Source: Sideroxydans sp. (lineage in GTDB: Bacteria > Pseudomonadota > Gammaproteobacteria > Burkholderiales > Gallionellaceae). Taken from it: 64,000 nt of DNA. The position numbers and the translations under genes are program-made. Positions within the stretch are counted from its first letter, which is position 1, and each line of letters opens with the position of its first letter. Below, one piece after another: positions 10,649 to 62,666 of the stretch. The notes beneath the pieces were generated by a model, which saw only the letters and a list, made by a program, of their open reading frames with translations, had not been told where the DNA came from and searched no databases. The stretch covers positions 1 to 64,000 of the forward strand of contig JAGXGC010000022.1 of assembly GCA_024636935.1 (NCBI GenBank). The letters are read 5' to 3'.

Positions 10649-11890
10649 CTATCGAAAATCCCTGCGTACCGTCATGGATGCATCGATACGATCAAAGCTG
10701 TAAATGGCTATATTGGATTTGTTGCGTGAATAACTGATCTGGGGACGGAACGTCCACAGCTTTGCAAAATGCCAATTAGCACCCAATGTGGCATCGGACA
10801 GTTTGTCATCGCGCTTGACCAGGAAGGCGAGATTCCTTTTGTCATACTGCCCTCTTTGAAAGCCAACGTTGGCAAACACCTCGGCCTCTTCGCTGAGTGA
10901 AGTTTGTCCGCCGAACCTCAAGCCATAGCCAGATTTGCTTCCGTCAGCACGATCATGCACCGCACCTTCTTTTAGCCCATTGATACTGCCAAACAGCGCG
11001 GATTTACCGTCATCCAAAATATGCAGCATCCCCGCACCGATGACTGCTTGATTGAAATCATTCACTTGATATGTGGGATCTGAATATCGATTCTTGCCGT
11101 ATTGCCCAAACACATTGAGCTGATTCTTGGGATTGAAAGTGTGCTGCCACCCCCCCGTGAACCCGTATGAATTTCTATTCTTCAGATGTGCCTGCTCATA
11201 GAAGCCCCAAGTCAGGCCCAATCGAAAAACTTCATCACCTGTTGCAAAGGCAGCGCCGGCTCGGGCATCCAAACTTCCAAAGTCATATGTATGCATCTTA
11301 TGATTGTTGCGCTGCCGCAGATCGACACCGCCATTTACACTCCATTGGCCAGTGAAGTCATGGTTAACCTCCCCGCCTATGGCACCCATATAGTAAGTGG
11401 CCGGTGTTTTCAGGCTGGTGGCATTCAAAGTGAACACCAGATCACCGAACGCAGGGATGGCTACATCCGATTGGCTGGTGGAATTATTGACGTTCGTATC
11501 ACGGCCGACAGTGCCCTCCAGATAGGCTGAATAACGCGTCTTCTTAGCCTCTTCTGCCGAATCGATCGCAGCAAGATATTTCTCGATAGTGATACGCGCA
11601 GCTTCCGGCGGCTCCTGCTTCATCACCGCTTCGAGTTCAGTCTTGGCGCGAGGAAGATCGCCCAGATGGAAATACGCACGGGCCATATCCAATCGCGCGC
11701 CCGCAAAGTTTGGATCAACAGCCAGAACACGCTCTAGGGCAAGCGTTGCTTTATCCGGATGGCCGCTATCCAGAGCAGCTATTCCCAATAGATAGTCAAA
11801 TTCCGAATTACCCGAATACTCGAAATCCTTTGCCGCCAAAAGCTGGTATGCATCTTCAGCTTTTCCTTCATTGAGCAGACCCGCTGCATC
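10649..11890 (-). pseudogene. 3' part of TPR/outer-membrane-barrel gene, split by the prophage
   Basis: About 412 residues of the original protein remain. Two or three TPR-like helices come first (NSEFDYLLGIAALDSGHPDKATLALERVL, AGARLDMARAYFHLGDLPRAKTELE), followed by a beta-barrel ending in Phe-Arg (DASMTVRRDFR), a layout like the DUF560/Slam family of surface-lipoprotein assembly modulators. The open frame runs on to 11929 only through prophage DNA. There is no signal peptide on this piece: it is on the other side of the prophage (49974-50175). Joining ...EQLLRD with AAGLLNEGKAED restores the frame exactly. Confidence 0.85.
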
Positions 11891-11891
11891 T
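11887..11891. repeat. Left copy of host target-site duplication CATCT
   Basis: CATCT here and at 49974-49978 flank the prophage. The uninterrupted host sequence would read GCATCTCGAAG. Because the last T of this copy could also be the first base of a TG...CA element, the duplication is five bases (element from 11892) or four (element from 11891). Confidence 0.75.
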
Positions 11892-12051
11892 GTGGGGGAG
11901 TGTTCGTATTGGCACATGGGAAGAACCAAGAAAAAACGGGAAGAAGTGGGATGCTGTGCGGGTTACAGGGCAATTAGAGATAAAAATCGAGGGTGGTTAA
12001 AAAAGCGCAAAAATGACCAAGGATTAACCATTTTTGCGCTTCATTTGGCAC
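11891..12051 (+). promoter_or_regulatory. Prophage left end with transposase-binding-like sites
   Basis: The terminal site is 11891-11915, ending TTGGCAC. An internal site at 12036-12051 reads, on the minus strand, GTGCCAAATG-N3-CGC, the same pattern as two sites at the right end. The arrangement is like the L sites of Mu bound by transposase A. Nothing else is seen in 11916-12003. Confidence 0.6.
12004..12040 (-). terminator. Perfect 12-bp inverted repeat after the repressor gene
   Basis: AGCGCAAAAATG (12004-12015) pairs with CATTTTTGCGCT (12029-12040) over a 13-nt loop. It lies 14 bp beyond the repressor stop and probably ends its transcript. The right arm overlaps a transposase-like site, so a role at the phage end is also possible. 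Confidence 0.5.
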
Positions 12052-12054
12052 AAC

Positions 12055-12795
12055 TTATATCTTGAATCGCCCGAATTTAAACGGGATCACAAGGCCGACA
12101 ATAAAGAATCGAGCCGCTTCTTCCGCTGTGTAGGTCTCGATGTTGGTCGAGCCATCACTCCTAACCACTATCGATCCATCCAACTTCAACTGAATACGCT
12201 TGAACCGCAAGTGTCCATCCTGTTGGATCGCATAGATCGCATCATCAATGAACCGACTGCACGATGTGTCAACCAGCACCTGATCCCCATGCGACAGTGT
12301 AGGTTCCATACTGTCACCAGACACTGACGCTATTTTTATATTGCTGAAGTTGCTGCCAACACGTTCACGCAGTAGTCGCACATCAACCCTTACCTGCACC
12401 ACGGCCTCTTCGTGAACCTCACTGCCGGGGCCAGCAGAGCCGCTCACGTTCACATATTTATCGATAGAGACCTGATCCCCTGCATACACTGGATTAGCAG
12501 GCGAGCTTGCTCCAAGCCCAATATCGTCAGCACCCCATGCATATAGCTTGTGAATATCCTCACTGAGGAACATCTCACCTACACCAGTTAACAGCCAGTT
12601 GGTGTTTATCTTGGCGCGCCCCAAATCAACTAACGCCTCCCCACCAGGCATGGAATTGCCAAGCTCATAATCCTTCAAGGAAGGTAATTTCATACCAGTT
12701 AGGACGCAGAACTCTTTTTGGGTCAAATGTAGCTCCGTGCGCGCATCTCTAATGCGCTTCCCAGTATCCACCTTCAGGTTGTCGCTAGAAATCAT
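12055..12795 (-). CDS. Phage repressor, HTH plus S24 peptidase
   Basis: 246 residues. The N-terminal XRE-type helix-turn-helix is RIRDARTELHLTQKEFCVLTGMKLPSLKDYELG; the C-terminal LexA/CI-like S24 domain has SGDSMEPTLSHGDQVLVD (catalytic Ser) and RFKRIQ (catalytic Lys). It is divergent from the early operon and lies next to five copies of AGCGACAACC, one inside its own first codons, so it should repress the early promoter and itself. The S24 domain implies RecA-stimulated self-cleavage, unlike the Mu c repressor, which lacks this domain. Confidence 0.92.
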   Translation of the reverse strand: MISSDNLKVDTGKRIRDARTELHLTQKEFCVLTGMKLPSLKDYELGNSMPGGEALVDLGRAKINTNWLLTGVGEMFLSEDIHKLYAWGADDIGLGASSPANPVYAGDQVSIDKYVNVSGSAGPGSEVHEEAVVQVRVDVRLLRERVGSNFSNIKIASVSGDSMEPTLSHGDQVLVDTSCSRFIDDAIYAIQQDGHLRFKRIQLKLDGSIVVRSDGSTNIETYTAEEAARFFIVGLVIPFKFGRFKI

Positions 12796-12912
12796 TTAGC
12801 GACAACCAAACAGCGACAACCAAACAGATGGTTGTCGCTATCAATAACTTCATGTTTATAAAACAAGTTCATTAAATTTCCTGCAAAGGTATGAAATAAC
12901 ATAGCGACAACC
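12777..12912. promoter_or_regulatory. Operator array of five AGCGACAACC half-sites
   Basis: Sites at 12777-12787 (minus orientation), 12797-12807 (plus), 12812-12821 (plus), 12830-12840 (minus) and 12902-12912 (plus). The third and fourth form a perfect 10-bp dyad with an 8-nt spacer. The fifth lies just upstream of the early promoter -35 box; the first two flank the repressor start. The position fits binding by the repressor, Ner or both. Confidence 0.75.
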
Positions 12913-13334: not shown

Positions 13335-13778
13335 ATGCGCAAGATCGTGGACACATTGACTGGCGACCTATTCGCCACCGTGCCACAAGCGCACCCAATG
13401 ACACCGGGTGCATGGCGCTTTCGTGGCGAGATCGCCCATGTGATGGGTGAAGCCATCAAGACATGCTCCAAAGACCGTTACCAGATCGCCGCTGATATGA
13501 GCCGCCTACTTGGGCGCGAGGTATCGGTAAACACCCTAGATAAGTACACCTCCGAAGCCTCGGAGGATCACATCCCAAACCTTGAAACCGCCATCGCTTT
13601 TGATGCCGCTACCGAACAGATGGCGCTTGCCAATCTATTCGTCAGCAAGCTCGGATGCCGCGTGCTTCCCGGCAAGGAAAGCCTTCTGGTCGAACTGGTT
13701 AGATTGGACCAGATGAGGGCGGACATCACCAAGCAAGAGAAGGCGATCAAGCGCGTCCTTGGAGAAAGCCATGACTAA
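13335..13778 (+). CDS. Conserved early phage protein of unknown function
   Basis: 147 residues, starting two bases after the ner stop and overlapping the transposase start. GEAIKTCSKDRYQIAADMSRLLGREVSVNTLDKYTSEASEDHIPNLETAIAFDAAT suggests a DNA-binding fold with helix-turn-helix character. Proteins of this sort occur between ner and transposase in several Mu-like phages. I cannot name a function. Confidence 0.75.
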   Translation: MRKIVDTLTGDLFATVPQAHPMTPGAWRFRGEIAHVMGEAIKTCSKDRYQIAADMSRLLGREVSVNTLDKYTSEASEDHIPNLETAIAFDAATEQMALANLFVSKLGCRVLPGKESLLVELVRLDQMRADITKQEKAIKRVLGESHD

Positions 13779-15870
13779 TAAAGTCGACATCAAGGTGATC
13801 GCTGATGCCTTGGACGTAAGTAAGCAGGCATGTCAAAAGCGTGCACTCAAAGAATCATGGCCGTTTGATGAAGTGCCACATCCGGGCGGGGGAAAGCGCC
13901 TCTACCCCCTCGCCACCCTACCCAAAGTAGTGCGCGAAGCCATCCTGCACCACAGCGTTAAAAGCTTGCACTCAGACGATGCTCCCCTTTCATCGTCTGG
14001 GTTGGGGGTTGCGACCACAGTCGCAACTCCTACCTATCCCGTAGTACCGCTTGATCCAGATCATTGCACCGCCCGCCAGCGTGAAGAGAAGCTGGCACGC
14101 CAAACAGTGCTGCGCAAGCTGGATGAGTTGCAACACGCCTCCAGTTGCACACGCGAAGCGGCGATCACGACCATGCTGACGATGGCACGTGCCGGAACAC
14201 TTGGTGAATCCGTATGCGCAACCCTGCGCATGGCACGTGATGCCCGTGGCCGCAAGGGCGATGAATACCCATCGGTGCGCTCACTCAAGCGCTGGATCGC
14301 CAAGGACAAGGCTGGCGACCTGATGCCCAAGATCACGCAAGCCGACATGCGCATCCTGCCTTGGCACGCGCTGGCGATATCCCTGCGCCGCCGCCCTCAA
14401 GGCAGCAGCTTGACGTGGCTGCACAGTGAACTTGAATCGCAGTGGAATGCAGAATGGGGAACCGCCCCGAGCTACCACGTAGTGAGCCGATTATTCCGCG
14501 ATAAGTTCAGCCAGATCGACCAACTCAAAGGCCGCTATACAGGCTCCGCGTTGCGCAGCCACAAGTTCTATCAACACCGCACCAATGAAGGGCTTGTACC
14601 AGCGATGGAAGTCCACGCGGACGGCTGGAACACCCACTTCACTGCACCACACCCTGTGACAGGCGAGTTCATCACCTATGAAGTGTGGCACTACCACGAT
14701 GTAGCAACTCGCTTCGTCACCCCACCCGGATTGGGTTTAACCGAGAAATTCGAGGTGATCGCTAAGGGCTTGGAGAACTTCATTCGTGTGTTTGGCGTGC
14801 CGCTGATCGTGCAGACCGACTCCACCAAGATCGTGCGCGGATCGGCACGCTTCACCAAAGACCCAGTGCGCTCAATCGAAGAGCGTGTCGGCTGCACCGT
14901 CGTCCACCCCCAAGAGGTTGGAAACTCCCAAGCCAACGGCATCTGCGAAAACTTCAACGTCAGCTACCTAGACAAGCGCAGCCGTGAACTGGCGACCTAC
15001 CAGAGCAAAGGACAGATGGATGAACTGACCTTTAAGCGCGTCAAGAAACTCACCGCAGACATGGTGAAAGCGGCCAACGCAGGCGACCTAGTAGAGCGCG
15101 ACAAGAAAAAACTCGAAGCCGAGCGCATGGGTAAAGGGATGGTGTTCACCACTCATGCCGAAGCGGTGGAGTGGATCAACGGTATATGCGCAGACTATAA
15201 CAATCGCCCGCATCGCAGCCTGCCAAAGGTGCGCGGAGAGGATGGCAAGTTGCGCCACCAGACCCCCGCAGAAGCGGTAGCTCAACATGCTGCCAATGGC
15301 TGGAAACCTGAGCTGATGGGCGACACACCAGAAGCCCACGAAGCATTCCTGATCGACACCTTCCGTCCGCGCACCATCGTCAAAGTCACCCGCGAAACCG
15401 TCAGCCCATACGGCGGCATGCGCTTCCGCAATGCCGAGGTTCTTGGCCACTGGAACGGTAAGGAAGTCGTGGTGGTGTATGACATCCATGAATGGCAGAC
15501 CGTGCGCGTAGAACAAATGAACGGTGCGCTGATCTGCATCGCAGAGTTCGTCGCAGCCACAGGCTACCGCGCTGTCACCGCCTACGAGGATGCAGAAGAC
15601 AAACGTGCCAAGGCTCAGATACGCCGCCGTGAGAAACAGATCGAGCAGATCGAGGCGCGTCATCCAACAGCGGCCATCGAAGCACCCGTTAAAACAATCG
15701 TGGACTTCATCGACATTAACCCCGCGCCAGCAAAGGAGCGTGAGCTAACCATCGCAGACTTTTTACCCGCAGCAAAGAAGGAAGAGAAGGAATCGACCTA
15801 TAGCGACACCGTTATGTGGCTGTACGGCGATAACAAGGAAGCACCGAAAGAAGAGGTGGCCGCCAAGTAG
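13771..15870 (+). CDS. Transposase A (MuA-like, DDE)
   Basis: 699 residues from the ATG at 13771, with GGAGA five bases upstream; a TTG at 13759 is less likely. The N-terminal winged-helix domain (IKVIADALDVSKQACQKRALKESWPF...HPGGGKRLY) resembles the Mu DNA-binding domain. The catalytic core has Asp ~284 (HADGW), Asp ~350 (QTDS) and Glu ~393 (GICENFN), the DDE triad. It cuts and joins the phage ends during integration and replicative transposition. The C-terminal part would contact the B protein. Confidence 0.96.
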   Translation: MTNKVDIKVIADALDVSKQACQKRALKESWPFDEVPHPGGGKRLYPLATLPKVVREAILHHSVKSLHSDDAPLSSSGLGVATTVATPTYPVVPLDPDHCTARQREEKLARQTVLRKLDELQHASSCTREAAITTMLTMARAGTLGESVCATLRMARDARGRKGDEYPSVRSLKRWIAKDKAGDLMPKITQADMRILPWHALAISLRRRPQGSSLTWLHSELESQWNAEWGTAPSYHVVSRLFRDKFSQIDQLKGRYTGSALRSHKFYQHRTNEGLVPAMEVHADGWNTHFTAPHPVTGEFITYEVWHYHDVATRFVTPPGLGLTEKFEVIAKGLENFIRVFGVPLIVQTDSTKIVRGSARFTKDPVRSIEERVGCTVVHPQEVGNSQANGICENFNVSYLDKRSRELATYQSKGQMDELTFKRVKKLTADMVKAANAGDLVERDKKKLEAERMGKGMVFTTHAEAVEWINGICADYNNRPHRSLPKVRGEDGKLRHQTPAEAVAQHAANGWKPELMGDTPEAHEAFLIDTFRPRTIVKVTRETVSPYGGMRFRNAEVLGHWNGKEVVVVYDIHEWQTVRVEQMNGALICIAEFVAATGYRAVTAYEDAEDKRAKAQIRRREKQIEQIEARHPTAAIEAPVKTIVDFIDINPAPAKERELTIADFLPAAKKEEKESTYSDTVMWLYGDNKEAPKEEVAAK

Positions 15871-15926
15871 TTCTAGCTACCGGACGGCCTTTTGAAGCAA
15901 CAGCACTACAGCAAGGAGAAATATAC

Positions 15927-16655
15927 ATGAAACAGCATTTCGTAGAAACCAGCAACCACCGCCGCTTCATCGCGGGTGTATCCGCAGTCGAGAACCGTGG
16001 CAGCCCAGAAGCATGCATCCAGCTACTCACAGGATCACCCGGTACAGGCAAGAGCTGCACCGTTGATAACTGGGGAGCCAAGCGCGACGCCATCTATCTC
16101 GAAGGCATCCCCGGCATGAGCCTCAGCTTCATCCGTGACTATCTGGCAGATCAGACCAACGTCTATGCACGCGGCAAGTTCGCCCAGTACCAAGGCATGG
16201 TGGATCACTTCCGCCGCAGCCGCCAACCCATCATCCTAGACGAAGCGCAGCACGGCTTGCCCAATAAGGCCGAGTGCATCGAATACCTGCGCCGCATCGC
16301 CGAGCAAGCCAACGTCATCCTGGTGCTGGTGTGCCACACCTCCGAGAAGCACCGCTTCAGCGAGGATCGTCTGGCCCACATCGCCACCCGCGTATCCGAC
16401 GTGACCGAGCTGAAGCCAGCCAGCATCGAAGACTGCGCCATCTATCTGGGTGACCTATGCGAAGTGCGCGTGGATGCAGGCATCGCGCAGTTGGTATTCG
16501 AGCAATCACGCGGACGCTACCGCCTCATGTCCAACGCCGGACGTACCCTTGAGGCCATCGGTAACAAGATGGGTTTAACCGAGCTGACTGCCTCCGACAT
16601 CAAGGGCATCCGCCTATGTGAAGACGCCATGAAGGCGCTGAAGAAAGGGGCCTGA
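15927..16655 (+). CDS. Transposition ATPase B (MuB-like, AAA+)
   Basis: 242 residues. Walker A is GSPGTGKSCTVDNW, Walker B is PIILDEAQHG, with a sensor-like LVCHTSEKHRF. MuB binds target DNA, stimulates transposase A and provides target immunity. It has the short form without the long N-terminal DNA-binding extension of Mu itself, as in B3- or D3112-like phages. Preceded by AAGGAG. Confidence 0.94.
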   Translation: MKQHFVETSNHRRFIAGVSAVENRGSPEACIQLLTGSPGTGKSCTVDNWGAKRDAIYLEGIPGMSLSFIRDYLADQTNVYARGKFAQYQGMVDHFRRSRQPIILDEAQHGLPNKAECIEYLRRIAEQANVILVLVCHTSEKHRFSEDRLAHIATRVSDVTELKPASIEDCAIYLGDLCEVRVDAGIAQLVFEQSRGRYRLMSNAGRTLEAIGNKMGLTELTASDIKGIRLCEDAMKALKKGA

Positions 16656-19768: not shown

Positions 19769-20131
19769 ATGAACAAAGCAATCAACTTTGTAATACCAGA
19801 ACCAAAAGAAGGTGAGATCTACGCTGGAACCATCATCAATCCTGATGGCACTGGGAAACACACCTTTCTACTGCCCGGCGACAACGACGATGCCGACTGG
19901 CAGACCCAGATGGACTGGGCCGCATCCATCGGCGGCGAGCTGCCGGATCGCGTGCAGCAAGCCATGCTCTACAAGCACCTGCCTGAGCTTTTCCAGAAGG
20001 ATTGGTACTGGTCTAGCGAGCAGCGCGGCTCCGGTTCCGCTTGGGTTCAGGACTTCTACGACGGCAGCCAGGATTGGTACAGCACCTTCTTCAAGTGCCG
20101 CGCTAGAGCCGTCCGCAGCGTATCCCTTTAA
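19769..20131 (+). CDS. DGR target protein 1 (DUF1566/CLec-like)
   Basis: 120 residues, with AAGGAG upstream. The body (FLLPGDNDDADWQTQMDWAASIGGELPDRVQQAMLY) and the ending WYWSS..RGSGSAWVQDF...KCRARAVR follow the DUF1566 pattern, a C-type-lectin-like fold used as scaffold by DGR variable proteins. Residues ~85-117 are the variable repeat: ten positions that are Asn in the template read V, D, Y, D, S, D, Y, S, F, F here. No signal peptide or membrane segment. Likely role: ligand binding through a diversified surface; the ligand is unknown. Confidence 0.92.
   Translation: MNKAINFVIPEPKEGEIYAGTIINPDGTGKHTFLLPGDNDDADWQTQMDWAASIGGELPDRVQQAMLYKHLPELFQKDWYWSSEQRGSGSAWVQDFYDGSQDWYSTFFKCRARAVRSVSL
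20021..20118 (+). repeat. DGR variable repeat VR1
   Basis: 98 bp aligned without gaps to the template at 21091-21188. It differs at 13 positions, all where the template has A (six to G, seven to T). The last ~25 bases (from AAGTGCCGCG to CCGCAG) and the first 24 are identical to the template. Confidence 0.95.
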
Positions 20132-20161
20132 CACTTCAGCATTCATCAATTGGAGATCGCA

Positions 20162-20533
20162 ATGAACAACGCAAAGAACGAATTCCTGAAATCCCTGCTC
20201 AAGGCAGGAGAAGAGTATGGCGGCCTGCTATTGGGCAAGGACGGCGAGCCAGATCAGCACATCGTATTACTTCCCGGCGAGGCACAAGCCGTGAACTGGG
20301 ACGATGCCAAGAAATTCGCCGCCGACGCAGGCGGTGAACTGCCAACGCGCCGCGAACAAGCACTGCTGTTCGCCAACCTGCCTGAGCATTTCACACCGAA
20401 CTGGTATTGGTCTGGCGCGCAGCGCGGCTCCGGTTCCGCTTGGGTTCAGGACTTCGACATCGGCTACCAGCTTTGGAACTTCACCAGCTTCAAGTGCCGC
20501 GCTAGAGCCGTCCGCAGATCAGTAGCCATTTAA
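20162..20533 (+). CDS. DGR target protein 2 (DUF1566/CLec-like)
   Basis: 123 residues from the ATG at 20162, with GGAG upstream. A paralogue of target 1: VLLPGEAQAVNWDDAKKFAADAGGELPTRREQALLFANLPEHF, then NWYWSGAQRGSGSAWVQDF. The variable repeat covers residues ~87-119 near the C-terminus. Relative to target 1, seven of the diversified residues differ (Y/D, D/I, S/Y, D/L, Y/N, S/F, F/S) while the framework is the same. A tandem pair sharing one template allows two independent specificities. Confidence 0.92.
   Translation: MNNAKNEFLKSLLKAGEEYGGLLLGKDGEPDQHIVLLPGEAQAVNWDDAKKFAADAGGELPTRREQALLFANLPEHFTPNWYWSGAQRGSGSAWVQDFDIGYQLWNFTSFKCRARAVRRSVAI
20420..20517 (+). repeat. DGR variable repeat VR2
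   Basis: 98 bp, gap-free to the template. 13 differences, all at template adenines (A to G, T or, once, C). One of the ten template Asn codons (AAC) is unchanged. Ends identical to the template; the match runs two bases further at the 3' end than for VR1. Confidence 0.95.
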
Positions 20534-20558
20534 CGATTCAATAATTCATTTATTCAGC

Positions 20559-20927
20559 ATGGCAATCACCTCAGAACTGCCCATATACAAAGTGGCCTAC
20601 GACCTACTCGGCGTCATCACGGATCTGTCTGCAAATATGCGGAGGGATTTCAAGCAAAGCTTAGGCGGCAAATTGCGTGATGAGTGCGTAGAGATCGTGA
20701 CGCTCATCTTCCGCGCTAACTGCGCTAGGGAGAAAGCGCCACATCTCGACGCGCTGATCGAGCGGTTGCAGGTTGCCGAGTTGCTGTTGCGTATATCGCG
20801 CGACAAGCTGCTCATCTCGACCAGCCAGTACGCCAAGGCTGTCGCGTTGACCGACAAGGTCGGCAAGCAGGCTGGGGGATGGCGCAAATACGCAATGTCG
20901 CCCGCTTCGTCAGGGTCAAGGCCATGA
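20559..20927 (+). CDS. avd: Avd, DGR accessory protein
   Basis: 122 residues, basic and fully helical in appearance: PIYKVAYDLLGVITDLSANMRRDFKQSLGGKLRDECVEIVTLIFRANCA, then HLDALIERLQVAELLLRISRDKLLISTSQYAKAVALTDKVGKQAGGW. This is the four-helix-bundle (S23/23S-IVP-like) family to which Avd belongs. Avd forms a pentamer that binds the reverse transcriptase and template RNA and is required for mutagenic cDNA synthesis. Its place between targets and template matches the Bordetella phage BPP-1 order. No clear ribosome-binding site. Confidence 0.9.
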   Translation: MAITSELPIYKVAYDLLGVITDLSANMRRDFKQSLGGKLRDECVEIVTLIFRANCAREKAPHLDALIERLQVAELLLRISRDKLLISTSQYAKAVALTDKVGKQAGGWRKYAMSPASSGSRP

Positions 20928-22324
20928 CGACTGTGCGAAAAGTTGATCTGGTCGTGCCGCTGGCCACACAGGCCACCGCCATGCGCACCGCAGATACCGC
21001 TGGGCTAGATACCCAAGGCAGGTCTGGCGCAGTTTCCTTGCTGACCGTCTATAGCGGTCGCCGAGGCGACGTAGAAAGCACGATACATCGCAGCGCGGCT
21101 CCGGTTCCGCTTGGAATCAGAACTTCAACAACGGCAACCAGAATTGGAACAACACCAACAACAAGTGCCGCGCTAGAGCCGTCCGCAGATGAACAAACGC
21201 GCCACCATGCTGAATTCTCTTTTGAAGAGTTGGTACAAGCCTATCTCGACTGTCGCCGCACCAAGCGCAACAGTGCCAGCGCATTGGCTTTCGAGACGAA
21301 TCTGGAACGTAACCTATGTCGTCTGAACGATGAACTGCTGGAAGGCCGCTATCAGCCCGGCAAGAGCATCTGCTTCGTCATCACCAGACCAAAACTACGT
21401 GAAGTATGGGCCGCAGAGTTCCGTGACCGCATCGTGCATCACCTGCTTTACAACCGCATCGCACCTCGCTTCTACGCAGGATTCATCGCAGATTCATGCG
21501 CCTGCATTCCCGGTCGCGGCACACTGTATGGCGCGAAGCGTCTGGAAGCGAAGATCCGCAGCATCACCCAGAATTGGAGCCAGCCCGCGCATTACCTGAA
21601 GCTGGATCTCGCCAACTTCTTCGTTAGCATCGACAAGCGCGTGGTGCGCCAACTGTTGGCCAAGCGTGTAGATGGCTGGTGGCTGCAATTGGCCGAGCAG
21701 GTGCTGTTCCACGATCCGCGCCAAGACTTCGAGCTGCGCGGCGATCCGGATCTGCTCGCCCGCGTCCCTGCGCATAAGCGCCTTACCAGCCAGCCAGCGC
21801 ACCTCGGCCTGCCCATTGGCAACCTGAGCAGCCAGTTCTTCGCCAACGTCTATTTGGACTTGATGGATCAGTTCATCAAGCACGAATTGCACTGCAAGCA
21901 CTACATCCGCTACGTCGATGACTTTCTGTTGTTGCATACGTCACCGCAGTGGCTGAACGCCGCGAAGTGGGAGATCGAGGAGTTCCTACGCGACAACCTC
22001 GGGGCGCGCATCAATCCCAGCAAGACCATCCTGCAACCGATAGAACGCGGTGTGGACTTCGTGGGCCAAGTCGTTAAACCGTGGCGCAGATATACCCGCC
22101 GCCGCACGTTTAACGATGCCTTGAGCCGCGCTGCGCAAATCCCGGCACATGAGTTGTTCGAGACCGCAAACAGCTACTTCGGCCTGCTGCGCCAATCTAC
22201 GCATAGCCACCGCGACCGCACGATGCTGGCCAATGTCCTGCGCCATCGCGGCCACTGCATCAACAAGGATTTAACCAAGACGTATAGGCAATCAACCAAG
22301 GGAGGCTCCAATGGCAACCAGTAA
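20924..22324 (+). CDS. DGR reverse transcriptase
   Basis: The RT domain begins near FEELVQAYLDCRRTKR (21221 on). Motifs: catalytic Asp in YLKLDLANFFVSIDKR; LPIGNLSSQFFANVYL, the (I/V/L)GxxxSQ signature that separates DGR enzymes from other RTs; and YVDDFLLLH. It copies the template RNA with adenine-specific errors. The start is uncertain. In this frame the nearest ATG codons (20924, overlapping the avd stop, or 20879) place the template inside the coding region; a TTG at 21230 is possible. An ATG at 21189 would give an N-terminus (MNKRATMLNSL) like known DGR RTs, but is one base out of frame across a T run at 21220-21223. Confidence 0.93.
   Translation: MTTVRKVDLVVPLATQATAMRTADTAGLDTQGRSGAVSLLTVYSGRRGDVESTIHRSAAPVPLGIRTSTTATRIGTTPTTSAALEPSADEQTRHHAEFSFEELVQAYLDCRRTKRNSASALAFETNLERNLCRLNDELLEGRYQPGKSICFVITRPKLREVWAAEFRDRIVHHLLYNRIAPRFYAGFIADSCACIPGRGTLYGAKRLEAKIRSITQNWSQPAHYLKLDLANFFVSIDKRVVRQLLAKRVDGWWLQLAEQVLFHDPRQDFELRGDPDLLARVPAHKRLTSQPAHLGLPIGNLSSQFFANVYLDLMDQFIKHELHCKHYIRYVDDFLLLHTSPQWLNAAKWEIEEFLRDNLGARINPSKTILQPIERGVDFVGQVVKPWRRYTRRRTFNDALSRAAQIPAHELFETANSYFGLLRQSTHSHRDRTMLANVLRHRGHCINKDLTKTYRQSTKGGSNGNQ
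21091..21188 (+). repeat. DGR template repeat (TR)
   Basis: 98 bp, the invariant donor. In the target frame it encodes ten Asn codons (AAY) in a stretch of 16 (W-NQNFNNGNQNWNNTNNK), the classic design in which A-mutagenesis at codon positions 1 and 2 gives the widest residue choice without stop codons. It ends in a TGA in that frame, overlapping an ATG at 21189. Surrounding non-coding-looking DNA from 20928 to about 21220 probably forms the template RNA. Confidence 0.95.
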
Positions 22325-22839: not shown

Positions 22840-23355
22840 ATGGCACCAAAGACCCGCATCAAAGCAAAAGCCCAAGTAAACATCCCGCAAACCAAGGATG
22901 AGGCCGCACGCGACATCCGCTCCATCGGCGACGCGCAGCGCAACCTGCTGCGCACCACCGCCGAGATGAATGACGCCATCGCCCACATCACCGCGACCTA
23001 CCAGCCCGTGCTGGAGACCATCGGAGACGACCTCAAAAAGCTACAGGAAGGCGTGCAGTTCTACTGCGAAGCCAACCGCGACGAACTGTGCGGAAAAGGT
23101 AAGACCGCCAACCTCGTCACAGGCGAAGTGCAATGGCGTCAACGCCCCCCCAGCGTGCGTGTGACAGGTGCCGAGAGTGTCATCGAGACACTGCAACGCC
23201 TCGGCTTGAGCCAGTTCGTGCGCGAGAAGCTGGAAGTGAATAAAGAAGCCATCCTCAACGACCCAGACGGCGTGAAGGGCGTGGCAGGCATCACCGTCGT
23301 GACAGGCGTTGAGGATTTTGTGATCACGCCGTTCGAGCAGGAAGTAGCTGCTTAA
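22840..23355 (+). CDS. gam: Gam, host-nuclease inhibitor (Ku-like)
   Basis: 171 residues. Matches the Mu Gam family: ARDIRSIGDAQRNLLRTTAEMNDAIAHITATYQPVLETIGDD, then GEVQWRQRPPSVRVTGAESVIETLQRLGLSQFVREKLEVNKEAIL. Gam binds linear DNA ends and protects them from exonucleases. Order gam-gemA-mor is as in Mu. Confidence 0.95.
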   Translation: MAPKTRIKAKAQVNIPQTKDEAARDIRSIGDAQRNLLRTTAEMNDAIAHITATYQPVLETIGDDLKKLQEGVQFYCEANRDELCGKGKTANLVTGEVQWRQRPPSVRVTGAESVIETLQRLGLSQFVREKLEVNKEAILNDPDGVKGVAGITVVTGVEDFVITPFEQEVAA

Positions 23356-46836: not shown

Positions 46837-47727
46837 ATGCGCAGAATAAATACCACCCACAAGGCCGCCGATCTATTCGGGCCGGGCAAAGACGGATTCC
46901 GTAACGGAGATATGGGCACCGGCATCATGCCAACCGAGCTGAATGCGGAATGGTTCAACATGATGCAGGAAGAAATTGCCGGCGTGGTTGAGGCGGCTGG
47001 ACTGGCGCTGAATTCCGGGAATTCTGCCCAATTGCAGGAAGCCATCAAACGCCTGATCGACGCCCAGTCCGGAAACTACGCCCTCGACACCGGAGCGGCC
47101 AATGCCTATGTAGTGGCACTCGATCCGGCCATCGTGGCCTATGCAGACGGCATGACTGTACGGGTTAAGGTTGTCAACGCCAATACTGGCGCATCGACGC
47201 TGAATGCAGGTGGTGGTGCCAAGTCGCTTGTGAATGATGTTGGAACAGCACTAGCTGTCGGTGACATACCAGCTAGCAGTGTTTTCACTGCCACTTATAT
47301 TCTGGCTGCGGACAAGTTCTACATCACCTCGATGGTGCAGTCTCAGGGGGATGCACGTTATGCCAAGTTGGAAGGCTTACTGACGCAAGCTTTCGTGGCT
47401 GCGGACGGTGCGACTGGGAAGCAGGTAGTGAATATCAGCCAATTTGCAAAATCACTTTCCGGGTCCGGTTATCAGAAGCTTCCTGGTGGTTTTATTATTC
47501 AGTGGGGCGGACTTACAAATACAGGGGGAAGTCAGGCTGTAACCTTTCCGATAGCTTTCCCTGCTGCTGTAGCTTCTATAACTAGTAATGGAGGTTGGGC
47601 TACTGGCGGAAATTATTTGACATCCGTGTCGGGACTAACAACAACTGGATTCACGATGAATTCGTATACATCCAATACGGGCGTTCTTGTGACTTGTAAT
47701 GCTGTATGGATTGCTATCGGATATTAA
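46837..47727 (+). CDS. Tail fibre protein
   Basis: 296 residues. The N-terminal phage-binding part (DLFGPGKDGFRNGDMGTGIMPTELNAEWFNMMQEEIAGVVEAAGL) is a common fibre module; the C-terminal ~90 residues (GYQKLPGGFIIQWGGLTNTGGSQAVTFPIAFP..) is a receptor-binding tip like those of Mu S or T4-like fibres. It shares no sequence with the DGR template, so it is not a DGR target. The later half is more AT-rich than its neighbours, a sign of module exchange. Confidence 0.88.
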   Translation: MRRINTTHKAADLFGPGKDGFRNGDMGTGIMPTELNAEWFNMMQEEIAGVVEAAGLALNSGNSAQLQEAIKRLIDAQSGNYALDTGAANAYVVALDPAIVAYADGMTVRVKVVNANTGASTLNAGGGAKSLVNDVGTALAVGDIPASSVFTATYILAADKFYITSMVQSQGDARYAKLEGLLTQAFVAADGATGKQVVNISQFAKSLSGSGYQKLPGGFIIQWGGLTNTGGSQAVTFPIAFPAAVASITSNGGWATGGNYLTSVSGLTTTGFTMNSYTSNTGVLVTCNAVWIAIGY

Positions 47728-50353: not shown

Positions 50354-50429
50354 TGGTGGCTCGGGGCGGAATCGAACCACCGACACGCGGATTTTCAATC
50401 CGCTGCTCTACCAACTGAGCTACCGAGCC
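50354..50429 (-). tRNA. tRNA-Phe (anticodon GAA)
   Basis: 76 nt on the minus strand, beginning GGCTCGGTAGCTCAGTTGGT and ending in encoded CCA. Anticodon loop ATTGAAAATC with GAA; T-loop GGTTCGATTCC. The acceptor stem GGCTCGG/CCGAGCC is fully paired. Confidence 0.97.
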
Positions 50430-62549: not shown

Positions 62550-62634
62550 CCCGCCGAGGGGCGCTGCAGCAGTCACCACATGGTGAACCTGTCAGGCTCG
62601 GCGGAGATGGTTCAACATGTAGCAACGGCGCCCA
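62550..62634 (+). ncRNA. SAH riboswitch
   Basis: CCCGCCGAGGGGCGCTGCAGC at 62550 pairs CCGCCGAG with CTCGGCGG (62598-62605), and the bulge GGGCGC can form the pseudoknot with GGCGCCC (62627-62633). This is the SAH aptamer known upstream of ahcY in beta- and gammaproteobacteria. Binding SAH exposes the ribosome-binding site (GGAG at 62657) and turns ahcY on. Confidence 0.9.
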
Positions 62635-62666
62635 TTCATTAACTCATTAAATGAATGGAGTGCTTT

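What the first reader, a model, noticed from the sequence alone, without database searches (positions are those of the whole stretch)
19769..22324. Complete diversity-generating retroelement with proof of adenine mutagenesis
Two 98-bp variable repeats (20021-20118 and 20420-20517) align gap-free to one template (21091-21188). Each differs at 13 positions; all 26 differences are at template A, none at C, G or T. Target genes, avd, template and an RT with the DGR-specific IGNLSSQ motif follow in the classic order. The two repeats differ from each other at seven residues, so both were rewritten separately. This is direct sequence evidence of past activity.
Basis: partly seen in the sequence, partly recalled or inferred. 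Interest (0 to 1): 0.95.

Follow-up and report, generated by a model that had tools for sequence, protein, structure and literature searches.

The report
Mutation template inside its enzyme's gene
In this prophage the template that likely serves to hypermutate two predicted lectin-fold genes lies inside the open reading frame of the reverse transcriptase predicted to copy it, directly after a conserved folded RNA (RT-15), so one transcript is likely both the enzyme's message and the mutation template.

Summary
The finding is real. Two 98-bp repeats align without gaps to one template; all 26 differences fall on template A. With avd and a DGR-type reverse transcriptase (RT) they form a DGR in the early region of a Mu-like prophage. 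Relatives were catalogued in 2012.

(1) The 195 nt directly 5' of the template match Rfam RT-15, a structured RNA whose Rfam name gives no DGR link. RT-15 abuts the template across the family, shows strong covariation, and no RNA constraint was seen 3' of the template. In BPP-1 the DGR RNA lies 3' of the template. (2) The template sits inside the RT frame: here every start codon ahead of the RT core lies 5' of the template. Among 159 representatives, template-to-RT spacing keeps frame in 156 of 158 measured. In a mainly Pseudomonas set the likely RT start codon is inside the template.

Best reading: a DGR lineage with a 5' RNA scaffold, whose transcript is likely both RT message and template. 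Current activity of this copy is untested.

The parts
19769..20131 (+). target gene 1, 120 aa, with VR1 at its 3' end
   Evidence: ORF; phrog_4245 5e-8; aligns with target 2 relatives in A2; its own structure was not modelled
20021..20118 (+). variable repeat VR1
   Evidence: 13 of 98 differences from TR, all at A
20162..20533 (+). target gene 2, 123 aa (ATG start chosen; TTG at 20150 also possible), with VR2 at its 3' end; predicted C-type lectin fold
   Evidence: model pLDDT 96.2; best PDB match 8q4e, Legionella Lcl C-terminal domain, E 1.1e-4
20420..20517 (+). variable repeat VR2
   Evidence: 13 of 98 differences from TR, all at A
20559..20927 (+). avd, 122 aa
   Evidence: PF22296 8e-12; phrog_3206 2e-31
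20896..21090 (+). RT-15 RNA (Rfam RF03018); overlaps the 3' end of avd and the 5' part of the RT frame, ends where the TR begins
   Evidence: 163.9 bits, gathering 82; covariation over 59 loci
20924..20927 (+). ATGA: likely RT start codon overlapping the avd stop codon
   Evidence: sequence; start codon within 12 nt of the avd stop in 98 of 129 open-class loci with avd found
21090..21188 (+). template repeat TR (21091-21188 as given, plus one shared base)
21165..21188 (+). TR 3' end (IMH-like), identical in TR, VR1 and VR2
   Evidence: 0 mismatches in the last 24 nt in 228 of 273 TR-VR pairs of the family
20924..22324 (+). RT gene from its likely start, 466 aa; the open frame begins at ATG 20879
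   Evidence: DGR RT 8ub7_A is the best sequence match in the PDB, 4e-39
20924..21202 (+). RT leader, residues 1-93, written in RT-15 and TR letters; predicted disordered
   Evidence: pLDDT under 50 over residues 1-93
13759..16655 (+). MuA-like transposase and MuB-like gene of the host prophage (context)
22840..23355 (+). Mu Gam-like gene downstream of the DGR (context)
   Evidence: PF07352 2e-36

Best explanation
This is a diversity-generating retroelement whose template repeat lies inside the open reading frame of its reverse transcriptase and directly 3' of a conserved RT-15 RNA, so that one transcript likely serves both as enzyme message and as mutation template, with RT-15 as the predicted 5' scaffold for the RT-Avd complex. 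Shown by sequence: an A-only footprint in two target genes; RT-15 ending where the TR begins; covariation in RT-15; raised synonymous conservation over RT-15 plus TR that drops to background right after the TR; an RT frame kept across TR and RT-15 in steps of three. Inferred: ribosomes start RT at 20924 (ATGA overlap with avd) and read through RT-15 and TR, making a disordered leader of about 93 residues that is under frame constraint only; on transcripts not being translated RT-15 folds and holds RT and Avd beside the TR; cDNA starts at the 3' end of the TR (GTCCGCAG), errs at A and replaces VR1 or VR2 in the two predicted lectin-fold targets. Since a ribosome and the folded RNA cannot share the same stretch, message use and template use of one RNA molecule would exclude each other. 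The priming site and the role of the targets are not known.
For: A-only footprint, and 3457 A against 58 non-A substitutions in TR-VR pairs of the 159 representatives (the detector allows few non-A, so the 58 is held down). RT-15 at 20896-21090 with the TR at its end; TR starts 3-7 nt behind the RT-15 end motif in 137 of 144 loci. RT-15 hits over the cut-off in genomes: 14 distinct loci, all 14 followed by an RT with a TR. Covariation: 39 of 56 pairs changed on both sides, 286 cells against 80 in shuffles (0 of 500), 34-66 in slid controls. Synonymous conservation 1.24-2.10 times expectation over 20909-21193, 0.89-1.13 from 21194 on and 0.82-1.19 along the RT core. TR end to RT core: 13 lengths, 156 of 158 in one class modulo 3. 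RT-15 length in frame in 120 of 130 loci whose RT frame is open through it, in 5 of 21 with a stop between RT-15 and the core; as events on a tree 30 of 36 and 1 of 10. In the window no start codon lies between TR start and RT core. Leader pLDDT under 50. In L010 the leader runs into another inserted frame and RT has its own ATGA-coupled start.
Against: An open frame alone is weak: BPP-1 is also open for 702 nt upstream of the brt start. TTG at 21230 inside the RT core could be a start in the window. In phage Haboob (L202) the annotated RT start lies behind the TR, and 14 of 151 relatives have some start codon behind the TR. 112 of 130 open loci have a start codon inside or behind the TR, so RT-15 need not be translated there. 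10 of 130 open loci break the RT-15 frame; of the 6 such events on the tree 5 have an ATG in the TR, L180 has not. The independent-pairs test of start mode against RT-15 frame is inconclusive: 8 pairs, median p 0.6. Folding the window stretch alone gives z -0.34. No RNA, protein or mutation data were available; RT-15 binding to RT-Avd is inference only.
Confidence: 0.68

Rival explanations
1. An ordinary DGR: the RT frame through the TR is a gene-calling accident, RT starts late (for instance at TTG 21230), and RT-15 acts only as a regulator of RT expression, not as part of the template RNA.
For: Open frames are common here, BPP-1 included; a TTG exists in the core; Haboob is annotated with a start behind the TR.
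Against: Frame kept in 156 of 158 TR-to-core spacers and 120 of 130 RT-15 lengths against 5 of 21; TTG 21230 would cut into the first predicted core helix (residues 100-113); RT-15 persists where the RT start is inside the TR, which does not fit a plain leader regulator; no other conserved RNA was seen near the TR.
Confidence: 0.12
2. A DGR of the described layout that is no longer active in this prophage: the footprint is old.
For: The identical copy L002/L121 has identical VRs; L004 and L005 (different metagenome records) share identical VRs with one difference elsewhere in 2800 columns.
Against: All parts have intact frames; zero non-A differences between the TR and both VRs; 9 relative pairs with unchanged TR and 256 of 261 VR changes at template A. 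Identical pairs may be one source or reflect rare firing.
Confidence: 0.12
3. The RT-15/TR-coded leader is itself a working protein domain of RT (for instance RNA binding), and RT-15 conservation is partly protein conservation.
For: Frame is kept and a consensus leader is seen.
Against: Little codon-position bias over RT-15 and TR; both-side compensatory changes; leader predicted disordered; leader mostly lost in loci with the start inside the TR and separated from RT in L010.
Confidence: 0.05

Closest known systems
Bordetella phage BPP-1 DGR (mtd-avd-TR-brt)
   Same: A-specific TR/VR pair, avd upstream of TR, related RT (8ub7, 4e-39), C-type lectin fold target (recalled for Mtd)
   Different: There Rfam RF03022 (Phage_DGR) lies 3' of the TR in a 144-nt gap before brt, avd abuts the TR, and TR and VR differ at 5 positions near the 3' end. 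Here RT-15 lies 5', no RF03022 hit, no gap, and TR and VR 3' ends are identical
Two-VR DGR of Sideroxydans lithotrophicus ES-1 and 'group 3' DGRs (Schillinger 2012, PMC3521204, passages seen)
   Same: Two VRs; [quoted passage not shown]
   Different: The passages seen say nothing of RT-15, of frame constraint or of a start codon inside the TR
Burkholderia phage Magia DGR (MT701587; PMC7883833, passages seen)
   Same: RT 64% identical, RT-15 end motif, TR directly behind it, two short targets; the authors name a potential DGR
   Different: Other phage type (integrase); the passages seen mention neither RT-15 nor a TR inside the RT frame
Pseudomonas phage Cruim01 (PP179333)
   Same: RT-15 annotated as misc_RNA next to the RT; RT CDS annotated from the ATG inside the TR
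   Different: The listed annotation of the stretch names no DGR, TR or VR
Rfam RT-15 (RF03018)
   Same: The RNA here is a member, 163.9 bits against 82
   Different: Listed only as 'RT-15 RNA', sRNA; no DGR role in what the tool shows

Membership tests
Diversity-generating retroelement | TR and VR that differ at template A only | tested here: met
   26 of 26
Diversity-generating retroelement | DGR-type reverse transcriptase | tested here: met
   phrog_1423 3e-111; DGR RT structures are the top five Foldseek matches; IGNLSSQ in the translation (motif significance recalled)
Diversity-generating retroelement | accessory Avd protein | tested here: met
   PF22296, phrog_3206
Diversity-generating retroelement | C-type lectin fold target with the VR at its C-terminus | tested here: met
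   target 2 model; target 1 by alignment only
Diversity-generating retroelement | mutagenic retrohoming seen in action | not testable with these tools
   no reads or cultures; family-level pairs only
BPP-1-type DGR | structured Phage_DGR RNA 3' of the TR | tested here: not met
   no RF03022 in the window at gathering or at E up to 1 in 20500-21500, none in 6 relatives; present in BPP-1; no synonymous constraint 3' of the TR
BPP-1-type DGR | IMH/IMH* difference between VR and TR ends | tested here: not met
   0 differences over the last 24 nt here; 228 of 273 family pairs identical; BPP-1 has 5
Rfam RT-15 RNA | score over gathering and the family fold | tested here: met
Mu-like transposable prophage (host element) | MuA-, MuB- and Gam-like genes plus head and tail genes | tested here: met

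The most novel reading that the evidence does not exclude
RT-15 marks a whole lineage of DGRs built in mirror image to BPP-1: the RNA scaffold sits 5' of the template, the template is itself translated as the leader of its own reverse transcriptase, and ribosome passage versus RNA folding sets whether a transcript makes enzyme or makes mutations. Homing direction is set by something outside the repeat, since TR and VR ends are identical.
Probability: 0.35. Interest if true: 0.78.

Novelty: new variant of a known kind. Interest (0 to 1): 0.6.

Why it matters
If true, it gives a function to an Rfam RNA family that carries no DGR label, supplies a second and differently placed RNA scaffold for DGRs, and shows that a mutation template can be coding sequence of the enzyme that reads it. 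Tools and designs that expect a non-coding 3' spacer or an IMH/IMH* difference may misread such loci. It can be tested, since relatives occur in sequenced phages of culturable bacteria.

Tried and rejected
Looked for a hidden RNA 3' of the TR inside the RT codons: no synonymous constraint. RNAalifold proposed 4 pairs between the TR end (GCAG) and RT codons (CTGC), paired in 99-100% of 150 sequences, but with changes on one side only and explicable by codon constraint: not claimed. Stem-loop behind the VRs: no perfect stem of 6 or more in the window; 73 of 273 VRs against 32 of 273 shuffled: weak, not used. More TR copies in the window: none. Single-sequence fold of 20890-21260: z -0.34, not informative. 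Independent-pairs test of start mode and RT-15 frame: inconclusive. Open frame as proof of coding: rejected, since BPP-1 has one too. Mu-like backbone as a family trait: rejected; of 74 representatives with long flanks, the window's own copy included, 3 match its MuA and 2 its MuB.
Full report
Observation. The repeats and template are as described: 98 bp without gaps, 13 differences each, 26 of 26 at template A; A to T 15, A to G 10, A to C 1. VR1 and VR2 differ from each other at 12 nucleotides in 7 codons. No further copy of the TR was found in the window. avd and RT are confirmed by Pfam and PHROGs.

Setting. The window is G000:C3:1-64000 of a 2.70-Mb genome in 36 contigs. The DGR sits in a Mu-like prophage: repressor-like genes, MuA, MuB, Gam, then terminase, head genes, tail sheath, baseplate, a separate tail fibre gene (46837-47727) with an assembly gene, and a DNA methyltransferase. 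The targets lie in the early region, about 26 kb from the fibre gene. The held 17,333 bases of a 37,187-bp viral contig (L002) are identical to the window from 12989 on. A one-contig genome of the same genus carries a relative (L027); its size of 3,003,656 bases fits Sideroxydans lithotrophicus ES-1 (recalled).

RT-15. Rfam places RT-15 at 20896-21090, with the TR at its end. Hits over the family's cut-off: 7 of 158 genomes of the family, 9 of 399 of the order, 3 of 398 of the phylum, own genome counted each time. These are 14 distinct loci; all 14 are followed by an RT with a TR. Three weaker hits of the order (L037-L039) are below the cut-off and have no such RT in the stretch held.

Relatives. 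RT searches gave 23 viral loci, the best 80 of 265 genome loci and the best 80 of at least 591 viral loci: a sample of close relatives, not of all DGRs. Of 198 loci, 195 have the RT; 159 representatives remain at 92% nucleotide identity. Substitutions: A to G 51.5%, A to T 31.7%, A to C 16.8% of 3457, against 58 non-A, a number held down by the detector. Nine pairs of 87-94% identical relatives have an unchanged TR; 256 of their 261 VR differences lie at template A. Six of the nine are among four Pseudomonas loci. In three further pairs the TR differs too, and 71 of 85 VR differences lie at A. Most other pairs were (nearly) identical throughout, VRs included, and may be one source.

RNA evidence. 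On an alignment made without structure, the window and 58 hand-picked relatives support the Rfam fold: 92.6% of cells paired, 39 of 56 pairs with both-side changes, 286 cells against 80 in shuffles (0 of 500), 34-66 in slid controls. RNAalifold on 150 loci finds the main helices. The motif near the RT-15 3' end is in 151 of 159. Of the other 8, 5 of 6 searched again score over the Rfam cut-off, L055 has none and looks broken (no avd, no TR-VR pair), and L035 and L036 were found as RT-15 hits. Synonymous conservation is 1.24-2.10 times expectation from 20909 to 21193 with little codon-position bias, then 0.89-1.13 with strong third-position bias from 21194 (120 loci); along the RT core it stays at 0.82-1.19. 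The TR part of this is also constrained by the target frame. So the conserved RNA seen is RT-15 plus TR, with no sign of one behind the TR.

Reading frame. The window's RT frame is open well upstream; its start codons ahead of the core are ATG 20879, 20924 and 20981, two GTG and one TTG, all 5' of the TR, with one TTG (21230) inside the core. TR end to RT core takes 13 lengths in 158 representatives, 156 in one class modulo 3. RT-15 length is in frame in 120 of 130 open loci and 5 of 21 with a stop between RT-15 and the core. On a quick RT tree (40 of 156 inner branches starred) the class changes 8 times; RT-15 length changes are multiples of 3 in 30 of 36 events in open lineages and 1 of 10 otherwise, but the independent-pairs test is inconclusive. 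All 21 stop-class loci (16 titled Pseudomonas) have an ATG inside the TR, and 18 of 21 have no start codon behind it; the record of phage Cruim01 starts RT at that ATG, that of Haboob behind the TR. In the open class a start codon lies within 12 nt of the avd stop in 98 of 129, as in the window. But 112 of 130 open loci also have a start codon inside or behind the TR, so reading through RT-15 is necessary in 18 of 130, the window among them. In L010 an inserted frame that looks like a methyltransferase (by eye) takes over the leader and RT has its own ATG. AlphaFold2 leaves residues 1-93 under pLDDT 50.

Comparison. In BPP-1, Rfam RF03022 (Phage_DGR) lies 3' of the TR in the 144-nt gap before brt; avd abuts the TR; TR and VR differ at 5 positions near the 3' end. 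A 2026 paper says that in BPP-1 the 3' spacer recruits bRT-Avd and primes cDNA (PMC12875486, passages). Here that side shows no such RNA, and TR and VR ends are identical in 228 of 273 pairs, so the cue for homing direction must be sought elsewhere. Caution: BPP-1 is also open for 702 nt ahead of brt, so openness alone proves nothing; the weight lies on frame-keeping and on missing start codons.

Targets. Target 2 is predicted as a C-type lectin fold (pLDDT 96.2; best PDB match Legionella Lcl C-terminal domain). In four named phages the cassette's listed neighbours are non-structural, such as recT, ssb, methyltransferase, glycosyltransferase or integrase genes, or hypothetical. Whether the targets join the virion or act early in the cell is open; receptor binding or decoration is my guess, about 0.6.

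What is known. DGRs with two VRs, Sideroxydans ES-1 included, and TRs overlapping an annotated RT ORF were catalogued in 2012 (PMC3521204, passages). I found no text linking RT-15 to DGRs: ('RT-15 RNA', 'RT-15 motif', 'RF03018') found 0 papers; one search found 0 but asked for the singular form only; one search listed 25 of 282 papers, none with RT-15. The source paper of RT-15 (recalled as Weinberg 2017) is not held, so a prior mention cannot be excluded.

Verdict. A new variant of a known kind: a usual outcome (A-mutagenesis of lectin-fold targets) by an unusual layout (5' RNA, coding template).

Noticed in passing
L007, about 11064-12851 (minus strand): A second, unrelated DGR on the opposite strand: a repeat pair with 13 differences, all at A, and an RT frame of 328 aa.
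   Followed up: partly
L010 8001-8850: An inserted methyltransferase-like frame (judged by eye) sits between TR and RT, is fused to the RT-15/TR leader, and ends in an ATGA overlap with an RT start of its own.
   Followed up: partly
L055 around 6033: RT with a TR-like stretch ahead of it but no avd, no RT-15 and no TR-VR pair found: looks like a broken element.
   Followed up: partly
window 21165-21188 against 20095-20118 and 20494-20517: TR and VR 3' ends are identical, so the IMH/IMH* mark of direction known from BPP-1 is missing.
   Followed up: partly
window VR1 and VR2: A to C is rare here (1 of 26) and the least common change in the family (16.8% of 3457), so misincorporation is uneven or selected.
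   Followed up: no
window 62550-62640 (+): SAH riboswitch, Rfam RF01057, 59.1 bits.
   Followed up: no
window 50354-50429 (-): tRNA-Phe close to the right end expected for the prophage from the L002 contig length.
   Followed up: no
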